Of a stretch of DNA of 48,752 bases, positions 7,470 through 18,480 are shown piece by piece. Both the position numbers and the translations under genes were made by a program. The notes below the pieces were generated by a model. The model was given only the letters and a program-made list of their open reading frames with translations. It was not told the DNA's origin and did no database searches. This DNA comes from Nitrososphaera sp. AFS (GTDB lineage Archaea; Thermoproteota; Nitrososphaeria; Nitrososphaerales; Nitrososphaeraceae): NCBI RefSeq assembly GCF_009898475.1, contig NZ_QURE01000020.1, positions 1 through 48,752 on the forward strand. Reading direction: 5' to 3'. Every line of letters begins with the position of its first letter. The first letter of the stretch is position 1.

Positions 7470-7502
7470 GCGGGGGTTGCCAAGCCCGGTCAACGGCGTG
7501 AG

Positions 7503-7529
7503 ATCAAAAAGATGGCTTACCGACACGAC
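7503..7529 (+). other. tRNA-Leu intron 1 (non-canonical, 30/31)
   Basis: The 27-base intron has a four-base-pair core helix CGTG (7497-7500) with CACG (7524-7527), a 5' bulge AG|A cut after 7502 and a 3' bulge AC|G cut after 7529. The inner helix is weak. Excision restores position 31 as G, pairing with C39. Confidence 0.85.
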
Positions 7530-7536
7530 GCTCAGA

Positions 7537-7555
7537 TGTATCGATTGACTGAGGT
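7537..7555 (+). other. tRNA-Leu intron 2 (canonical, 37/38)
   Basis: The 19-base intron has a core helix CTCA (7531-7534) with TGAG (7550-7553), a 5' bulge GA|T cut after A37 (7536) and a 3' bulge GT|A cut after 7555. The core uses anticodon-loop bases, as usual for 37/38 introns. The middle exon is only seven bases, 7530-7536. Confidence 0.85.
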
Positions 7556-7843
7556 ACCTCATCCCTTAGGGGTTCGTGGGTTCGAATCCCACCTCCCGCA
7601 CCTGTATTTCAATACTCCTGAATTATATTTACATTATTATTAGAAAGAATAGTGGATTCCTGTAAAGAAGTTACTTCAGAAGTATGCCAACTACTTGGAC
7701 AGATCGTTTTCATGTTCGACTTAGTCAAAGGAATATAAGCCAGGTACATTCTCTGATAACATGACATATCATCTACTCAGAAAGGAAAGTCATCCAATTC
7801 TTTCTATATATGCTATTATGTCTCTTCCTGTATATTCTAATCC

Positions 7844-16842: not shown

Positions 16843-16964
16843 CTAATATCCATGTCACTAATTACATGCAACGGGATAATGACTAACCACTAGACTTGAC
16901 GAAAGGAAATAGAGATATATTATACCATCGCAGAGGAAGTTTGTCAGCGGGGTGGGGAAGCCAG

Positions 16965-16986
16965 ATTCTCAAAAGGACTAGGCTAG
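16965..16986 (+). other. tRNA-iMet intron 1 (D loop)
   Basis: The 22-base intron has core helix AGCC (16959-16962) with GGCT (16981-16984), 5' bulge AG|A and 3' bulge AG|G. The inner helix is poor (a possible TTCT/AGGA pairing), so this is a relaxed motif. Confidence 0.85.
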
Positions 16987-17021
16987 GTGATCCCGGCGGG
17001 CTCATAACCCGCAGAGCGGTT

Positions 17022-17052
17022 TCCACTTTATGCACTAAGCATGTGGCCGCAA
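17022..17052 (+). other. tRNA-iMet intron 2 (T stem)
   Basis: The 31-base intron has core helix GCGG (17016-17019) with CCGC (17047-17050), 5' bulge TT|T and 3' bulge AA|G. The inner helix is strong: CCAC with GTGG, then ATGC with GCAT around an ACTAA loop. The splice falls between positions 52 and 53 of the T stem. Confidence 0.9.
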
Positions 17053-17082
17053 GTTCAAATCAACCCCCCGCTACTGATCAAC

Positions 17083-18480
17083 TCACAGGAGCCGAAACCA
17101 TCCTTTGATCAATTCTGCATTCGGCCTAGACCATGATGATTTCTCAATTCCATACCTATGTGGTGGCTTCGTCAAATGTCGGCGAGATTTAGGTGTAGGG
17201 ATATAAAGGCCAGGTTGAATGCTTCTTTTGTGAGGGATTGGGATCTTTTTGGCATTGATGTTCCTATATTTGCATTTGTCGCATTGAAATCCTTTATTCC
17301 GGCCCTCTGACTTCATCTTTTTGCGGCAAAACGTGCATAATGGATTTGACAAATCGTAGGTTTGCACAATAGACAATATTGAGATATATTCTACATTCAG
17401 AATCACCTGACTGGCTGTGTTGGAAAGATGAACTCCACACCCAATTTGGATTGTATCTCCTCTCTCAAGTTGCGAAGCAATGTGTGTAATACCAGTTGGT
17501 TCATAGACCGCAACTGGTCTAGAGGTGCCACTTGTGTCTTCAACAGCAAAGAATAAGTGACCGCCCTGTATAACCTGAGGTGTAGTGGTGACCGTTCCGA
17601 CTACATAACCAGACATATAAGGTCTAATAGATGATAGTTGCAATTGGTTTTGCAAATGCATATCTGTACCCTGGTTTGAACGAAAAACCATGTATCCCTC
17701 CAAGCTCTCTTCTACACATAGTGAATTTAGAGAAGAGACCACAATTTCAGGACTTTCACCTCTTATGCCACAAAAAACGGGGTCTGGACCATGAGGTGCG
17801 ATCAACACACGCCTGTGGGTTTGATCATAGTTATTAAAGGTATAAGGAAAAGTTCTATTGTCATAGTTTATGACACTTGTTACATTTATTTGTCTGTATG
17901 TTCCACAGTTGTCACGTGTTCGGTATGCTATAACTTCGTAAGTATAATCTCCTTCTTCTAAACTTCCTATTGCCGCCAATGAACCTACAATACCTTGACC
18001 GTTTCCAAAGGTGAAATAGCTCATACAATGTTTCTTTGCTACCTTTTCAGCAATTTGCCTACTTTGTACATCATACAGTGCAATTGCCCCGAAATCCTTG
18101 ATCATTTTCGGGATGGGATTACCATTTAAGAATACAACGCCGGGATTTGCACCATTATTGATAGCTGATTCTTTTTCAACAATTAATCTTAATTCTTGGA
18201 TTATTTTTTCATGGTCTTTAGCCTTAATTCTTAGACACACTGCTCCATTTCCTCGCGTCTTCATAGGTATATTCGGGTTTAATCTCACCAACAATGGATA
18301 ATCGATGAATTGTGCATCAGAATTATCTAGTAAAAACCTGGTAATCTTAAAAGCAAGATGCGTAGTGCATTTCCCTTCGAGGGAGTCAGTATCATCAAAT
18401 CCAATATGGAGTATCTCGCTCTGATTTATATCGTGTAGATTAGGTTCATATAACGAGCTCTTTGTATTCCAGCTCAACAT
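17083..18480 (-). CDS. tiaS: tRNA(Ile2) 2-agmatinylcytidine synthetase TiaS
   Basis: TiaS uses ATP and agmatine to modify C34 of tRNA-Ile(CAU), so that it reads AUA rather than AUG. The 465-residue protein has the N-terminal signature HIGFDDTDSLEGKCTTHLA (residues 26-44), a kinase-like middle with GNGAVCLRIK and NGQGIVGSLAAIG, an OB-fold segment (YVVGTVTTTPQVIQGGHLFFAV), and a C-terminal zinc ribbon CTFCRKK...CDKCKY. ATG 18480 is some 25 residues before the signature; the start is plausible. It lies next to the CAT-anticodon initiator tRNA gene, which must not be its substrate; the neighbourhood is probably chance. Confidence 0.93.
   Translation of the reverse strand: MLSWNTKSSLYEPNLHDINQSEILHIGFDDTDSLEGKCTTHLAFKITRFLLDNSDAQFIDYPLLVRLNPNIPMKTRGNGAVCLRIKAKDHEKIIQELRLIVEKESAINNGANPGVVFLNGNPIPKMIKDFGAIALYDVQSRQIAEKVAKKHCMSYFTFGNGQGIVGSLAAIGSLEEGDYTYEVIAYRTRDNCGTYRQINVTSVINYDNRTFPYTFNNYDQTHRRVLIAPHGPDPVFCGIRGESPEIVVSSLNSLCVEESLEGYMVFRSNQGTDMHLQNQLQLSSIRPYMSGYVVGTVTTTPQVIQGGHLFFAVEDTSGTSRPVAVYEPTGITHIASQLERGDTIQIGCGVHLSNTASQVILNVEYISILSIVQTYDLSNPLCTFCRKKMKSEGRNKGFQCDKCKYRNINAKKIPIPHKRSIQPGLYIPTPKSRRHLTKPPHRYGIEKSSWSRPNAELIKGWFRLL

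What the first reader, a model, noticed from the sequence alone, without database searches (positions are those of the whole stretch)
16946..17073. Initiator tRNA-Met gene with two introns, both outside the anticodon loop
Sequence shows a complete initiator tRNA only if 22 bases are removed from the D loop and 31 from the T stem. Each site has a four-base-pair core helix (AGCC/GGCT and GCGG/CCGC) between two three-base bulges, with cuts after the second bulge base, the known archaeal bulge-helix-bulge rule. The anticodon loop has no intron. Non-canonical tRNA introns are best known from Thermoproteales; two in an essential, single-purpose tRNA of a thaumarchaeon imply a heteromeric (alpha2beta2) splicing endonuclease with relaxed specificity.
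Basis: partly seen in the sequence, partly recalled or inferred. Interest (0 to 1): 0.75.

Follow-up and report, generated by a model that had tools for sequence, protein, structure and literature searches.

The report
Initiator tRNA gene with two introns
In a soil archaeon related to ammonia oxidisers, the only gene found for the tRNA that starts every protein is interrupted twice, at the two places that should form the tRNA's elbow; the pieces must be cut out to give a working tRNA, and most related archaea carry the same two interruptions, so it is real and conserved but an instance of a known kind of archaeal intron.

Summary
Window 16946-17073 (+) is an initiator tRNA-Met(CAU) gene with a 22-nt intron at position 18/19 (16965-16986) and a 31-nt intron at 52/53 (17022-17052). 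ARAGORN calls a tRNA only when both are removed. The genome (a Nitrososphaeraceae MAG, genus Candidatus Nitrosopolaris) shows no other copy; single-contig relatives also have one, intron-bearing, copy. Of 58 family loci, 47 carry 18/19, 50 carry 52/53 and 45 both. The mature sequence is almost invariant, while introns diverge to 50-70% identity yet keep their splice helices by compensatory change. A TATA-like box is conserved upstream. A catalytic splicing-endonuclease alpha subunit with the crenarchaea-specific-loop lysine is in the same genome; beta is absent from this 90%-complete assembly but present in all five genus mates. Across the order, 91 of 93 readable genes have one to three introns. 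Non-canonical introns in Thaumarchaeota are already known, so this is a well-conserved new member of a known kind. One addition: the two introns split both halves of the tRNA elbow, so splicing must rely on the local bulge-helix-bulge rather than on the mature tRNA body. Splicing itself is inferred; no RNA data were available.

The parts
16914..16922 (+). TATA-box-like element (gatatatta), 24-32 bases upstream of the tRNA 5' end
   Evidence: sequence; a gatatat-like element at a similar distance stands upstream of nearly all family members
16946..16964 (+). exon 1: tRNA positions 1-18 (acceptor 5' strand, D-stem 5' strand, part of D loop)
16959..16962 (+). BHB core strand AGCC of site 1 (pairs with 16981-16984)
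16965..16986 (+). intron 1, 22 nt, position 18/19, between the two conserved D-loop Gs
16981..16984 (+). BHB core strand GGCT of site 1
16987..17021 (+). exon 2: positions 19-52 (D-stem 3' strand, anticodon arm with CAU and GGG/CCC, variable loop, first 4 bases of T stem)
17016..17019 (+). BHB core strand GCGG of site 2 (pairs with 17047-17050)
17022..17052 (+). intron 2, 31 nt, position 52/53, inside the T stem
17023..17026 (+). inner-helix strand CCAC (pairs with GTGG 17043-17046)
   Evidence: MFE fold; covariation over 48 distinct introns
17047..17050 (+). BHB core strand CCGC of site 2
17053..17073 (+). exon 3: positions 53-73 (T loop, T-stem 3' strand, acceptor 3' strand, A73); CCA not encoded
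17083..18480 (-). tiaS (tRNA-Ile2 CAU agmatidine synthetase), tail to tail with the tRNA; conserved neighbour, not part of the intron system
   Evidence: Pfam TiaS_FLD 5.1e-39; synteny

Best explanation
This is the only initiator tRNA-Met gene found in a Nitrososphaeraceae archaeon (genus Candidatus Nitrosopolaris). It is transcribed from its own TATA-like promoter as a precursor whose tRNA body is 128 nt. An (alpha-beta)2 tRNA-splicing endonuclease with the crenarchaea-specific-loop lysine cuts two relaxed bulge-helix-bulge sites, in the D loop at 18/19 and in the T stem at 52/53, and RtcB joins the three exons. The D stem and the first BHB can form together in the precursor. The T-stem BHB core uses positions 47-50, so the T arm, and with it the elbow, can form only after intron 2 is removed. 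Shown here: gene anatomy, conservation, covariation, single copy, presence of alpha and RtcB in this genome and of beta in its congeners. Inferred: transcription, cutting, ligation and the order of events.
For: Only the doubly spliced product is a tRNA, and it folds as a cloverleaf. In 56 of 56 full-length family genes the initiator features A1:U72, GGG/CCC at 29-31/39-41 and CAU are present, with 0-5 differences from the window's mature sequence, while introns are only 0.50-0.97 identical. Of 58 family loci 47, 50 and 45 have 18/19, 52/53 and both; all 6 of the genus have both. Site 2 core is 98% paired over 48 distinct introns; its inner helix is 87% paired against 69% with partners shuffled among sequences and 24-38% when slid; the 18/19 inner helix is 87% against 56%. 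No second copy in this genome; one copy, with both introns, in single-contig G006, G017 and G024. Conserved TATA-like element. Alpha (G000:C56, L138 686-1285) matches 2cv8 at 1.9e-40 and its K54 aligns with A. pernix K44, the lysine credited with broad specificity (PMC6379350). Beta in G001-G005 lacks the catalytic His. RtcB at 4.5e-171.
Against: No RNA evidence. Beta is not in this assembly (89.6% complete). In the window's own sequence the inner helix of site 1 is weak. The core pairs themselves are mostly invariant, so they show little covariation (core 98% observed against 96.5% shuffled for site 2, 90% against 89% for site 1).
Confidence: 0.95

Rival explanations
1. A decayed initiator tRNA pseudogene with insertions; the working gene lies elsewhere.
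For: ARAGORN and Rfam see no tRNA in the raw sequence; the assembly is about 10% incomplete.
Against: Exons are near-invariant over the family while introns diverge but keep their helices; no other copy in closed relatives; promoter element conserved.
Confidence: 0.02
2. The inserts are retained in the working tRNA as expanded D and T arms.
For: No RNA data exclude it directly.
Against: The T stem GGUUG/CAACC is perfect only after removal, and the first insert splits the invariant G18-G19; cut sites carry BHB geometry; relatives replace these introns by others at 37/38, 56/57 and 59/60 or have none.
Confidence: 0.01
3. The introns are removed by something other than EndA, for instance a self-splicing ribozyme.
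For: Group I introns are known in archaea (PMC6125680, listed).
Against: 22 and 31 nt (13-37 nt in relatives) are far too short for a ribozyme (general knowledge); covarying BHB-type helices; EndA alpha present.
Confidence: 0.01

Closest known systems
Non-canonical BHB tRNA introns of Crenarchaeota (Thermoproteales) and Thaumarchaeota
   Same: Short introns outside 37/38, BHB-like sites, several per gene, (alpha-beta)2 endonuclease (PMC4090602, PMC8450103, PMC3218864)
   Different: Here in the only initiator tRNA gene, at 18/19 and 52/53, and conserved as a pair through most genera of a family. These two positions are not in the example list of PMC4090602 (20/21, 22/23, 25/26, 29/30, 30/31, 45/46, 53/54, 56/57, 59/60, 'etc.'); they may be in GtRNAdb, which could not be consulted
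Permuted initiator tRNA gene of Thermofilum pendens (59/60 and 37/38) and split initiator tRNA of Nanoarchaeum equitans (37/38)
   Same: Initiator tRNA gene disrupted and restored by BHB splicing (PMC3218864)
   Different: Those are permuted or trans-spliced; here exons are in order and spliced in cis, with no anticodon-loop break
Crenarchaeal (alpha-beta)2 EndA with crenarchaea-specific loop (Aeropyrum pernix, 3p1z / 3ajv; 2cv8)
   Same: Catalytic Tyr/His/Lys and the CSL lysine align in alpha; separate non-catalytic paralogue in congeners
   Different: Beta not recovered in this genome; activity untested

Membership tests
archaeal initiator tRNA-Met | CAU anticodon, A1:U72, three G:C pairs at 29-31/39-41, cloverleaf after splicing | tested here: met
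archaeal BHB tRNA intron | 4-bp core helix with cuts two bases into 3-nt bulges at both junctions | tested here: met
   core 4/4 at both sites in the window; across relatives 90% and 98% of core cells paired; the flanking helix is weak on one side of each site, i.e. relaxed BHB
archaeal BHB tRNA intron | exact removal gives a standard tRNA | tested here: met
   with single-removal and no-removal controls negative
archaeal BHB tRNA intron | cut by EndA and ligated by RtcB in the cell | not testable with these tools
   enzyme genes present, no RNA or enzyme data
(alpha-beta)2 EndA | catalytic alpha plus distinct non-catalytic beta in the same genome | tested here: inconclusive
   alpha in G000; beta missing there but in G001-G005, both together in G002, G003 and G005
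EndA with crenarchaea-specific loop | conserved Lys equivalent to A. pernix K44 | tested here: met
   K54 of alpha aligns with K44 of 3p1z chain B; K44 named in PMC6379350
group I self-splicing intron | ribozyme core of more than about 200 nt | tested here: not met
   introns are 22 and 31 nt; no Rfam intron match

The most novel reading that the evidence does not exclude
The initiator tRNA gene of this archaeal order is a preferred home for introns, kept by selection as a folding checkpoint: breaks at G18/G19 and in the T stem prevent the elbow from forming, so only spliced molecules can be end-processed and enter initiation. The order-wide pattern (91 of 93 genes disrupted, one to three introns at several positions, different positions in different families) is compatible with this but equally with neutral gain and retention. 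Whether initiator genes are more disrupted than other tRNA genes was not measured.
Probability: 0.12. Interest if true: 0.65.

Novelty: new member of a known kind. Interest (0 to 1): 0.4.

Why it matters
Common gene finders miss this gene completely (ARAGORN and Rfam's tRNA model both fail), so genomes of this soil group can look as if they lack an initiator tRNA. Translation initiation in these archaea depends on two correct splicing events in a single-copy gene, which would make the endonuclease essential for every protein made. Both halves of the elbow are interrupted, so these precursors are natural substrates for asking how EndA finds its site without the mature tRNA body. The comparative set (41 distinct 18/19 introns, 48 distinct 52/53 introns) is ready material for that test.

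Tried and rejected
Pseudogene, retained insert and self-splicing intron were considered and rejected (see rivals). The alternative cut 17a/18 was rejected from relatives whose intron ends in A or T. The first automatic alignment mis-centred several loci near contig ends (L032, L034, L043, L055, L057); redone with anchored search. In more distant families my aligner's positions 50/51, 55/56, 56/57 and 62/63 are approximate, because T-arm introns there have several possible registers and some have core scores of 2-3; they are used only as 'other intron in the T arm'. L101/L102 and similar low-scoring cases probably hold two adjacent T-arm introns that the aligner merged. Eight intron-bearing or long tRNAs of this genome aligned to Rfam put their extra bases in the anticodon or variable region rather than in the D or T arm, but tRNAs disrupted like this one would be missed by that search. 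Literature searches found no paper naming these introns in Nitrososphaeraceae initiator tRNA; subscription papers and GtRNAdb are outside the library.

Full report
Observation. Window 16946-17073 reads AGCGGGGTGGGGAAGCCAG [22 nt] GTGATCCCGGCGGGCTCATAACCCGCAGAGCGGTT [31 nt] GTTCAAATCAACCCCCCGCTA. With both bracketed stretches removed the 75-mer is a complete cloverleaf with anticodon CAU and ARAGORN reports tRNA-Met(cat). With one or none removed ARAGORN reports nothing, and neither ARAGORN nor Rfam sees the gene in the raw window. By standard numbering the breaks are 18/19 and 52/53. The initiator features A1:U72, GGG/CCC in the anticodon stem and CAU are present.

Splice sites. Both junctions obey the BHB rule: AGCC/GGCT and GCGG/CCGC cores, with cuts two bases into three-base bulges. 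The minimum-energy fold of the unspliced RNA contains both cores, the D stem and the anticodon stem, but not the T stem, whose first two bases (49-50) are held in the second core. Site 1 has a weak inner helix in this genome and site 2 has almost no outer helix, so both are relaxed rather than strict BHBs.

Whose genome. The window lies in a 2.34-Mb, 154-contig assembly, 89.6% complete. The window's best named match is a Nitrososphaeraceae soil MAG (L198, 89.5% over 5.9 kb). The next, at 75%, is Candidatus Nitrosopolaris wilkensis (L182), which carries the same T-arm intron as genus member G005. I therefore place it in Nitrosopolaris, family Nitrososphaeraceae.

Conservation. The gene was found in relatives by DNA search, fetched, and split into exons and introns by an alignment that permits introns anywhere. 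Of 58 family loci, 47 have 18/19, 50 have 52/53 and 45 have both; none is intron-free. In the other families of the order 18/19 and 52/53 recur, alone or with 37/38, T-loop, acceptor-stem (4/5) or variable-region introns. Overall 91 of 93 readable genes are disrupted, by up to three introns. Intron-free genes exist in G074, G084 and some named lineages such as L160, L186 and L197.

Selection on structure. Mature sequences of 56 full-length family genes differ from the window's at 0-5 positions, while introns have median identity 0.59 (18/19) and 0.68 (52/53) to the window's. Over 48 distinct 52/53 introns the inner helix is 87% paired through CG, TA, AT and GC changes, against 69% when partners are shuffled and 24-38% when slid; for 18/19 it is 87% against 56% and 53-69%. 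Related sequences inflate such contrasts, but the alternation of pair types at one position (for example inner pair 2 of site 2: 25 CG and 19 TA) is hard to get otherwise. The core strands on the exon side are fixed by the tRNA, so there the evidence is conservation, not covariation.

Is it the working gene? A search of this genome with the mature sequence finds only these three exons. In three single-contig relatives of the family (G006, G017, G024) the only copy carries both introns; other closed genomes also have a single copy, disrupted in their own way. A gatatat-like box stands 24-32 bases upstream here and at a similar distance in nearly all family members. The initiator tRNA is therefore made from this gene or not at all in the assembled part.

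Machinery. EndA alpha (199 aa, G000:C56, L138 686-1285) matches crenarchaeal catalytic subunits (2cv8, 1.9e-40; A. pernix 3p1z, 8.9e-39), with Tyr, His and Lys of the triad and a lysine aligned to A. pernix K44 of the crenarchaea-specific loop. That lysine is reported to be needed for the broad specificity of crenarchaeal (alpha-beta)2 enzymes (PMC6379350). A second paralogue without the catalytic His is found in all five other genus members (G001-G005) but not in this assembly. RtcB ligase is present. PMC4090602 already states that Thaumarchaeota have alpha2beta2 enzymes.

Mechanism and a point of interest. Intron 1 separates G18 from G19, the two D-loop bases that dock on the T loop (general knowledge); intron 2 splits the T stem. 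Neither half of the elbow is intact in the precursor, so the enzyme cannot use the mature-body ruler that eukaryotic EndA needs (PMC6379350) and must read the local motif. That is inference from anatomy.

Place among known things. Non-canonical BHB introns, several per gene, are known from Thermoproteales and from Thaumarchaeota: tRNAscan-SE 2.0 reports 107 non-canonical introns in thaumarchaeal genomes and trained a dedicated model on them (PMC8450103). Initiator tRNA genes disrupted in other ways are known (Thermofilum pendens, Nanoarchaeum equitans; PMC3218864). What this adds is the specific, family-wide pair in a single-copy initiator gene and the order-wide pattern. I found no paper naming it, but the tables of GtRNAdb were out of reach and may list it for cultured Nitrososphaera.

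Verdict. Interest 0.4.

Noticed in passing
window 17083-18480 (-) and 16946-17073 (+): tiaS, the enzyme that modifies the other CAU tRNA (Ile2), lies tail to tail with the initiator tRNA gene, usually within about 2-270 bases, in nearly all family members whose flank was held, and within 1-6 kb in several other families. No reason for the linkage is known to me.
   Followed up: partly
window 7470-7600 (+): A second intron-bearing tRNA, apparently tRNA-Leu(CAA) with a canonical intron of roughly 45 nt after the anticodon; Rfam tRNA 29.6 bits. ARAGORN misses it.
   Followed up: partly
L203 (JAJYUR010000022.1, titled Candidatus Micrarchaeota FK1.bin29): Its intron-free initiator tRNA is identical in mature sequence to that of Nitrososphaerota FK4_bin.88 (L186) from the FK series; probably a mis-binned contig.
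   Followed up: no
L052 and L141 (genus g12): The tiaS match runs 22 bases into the 3' end of the initiator tRNA gene on the opposite strand, so the two genes may overlap there.
   Followed up: no
G067 (order member, 94% complete): No EndA hit at all in this genome although its initiator gene carries 37/38 and 59/60 introns; probably assembly gaps, not checked.
   Followed up: no
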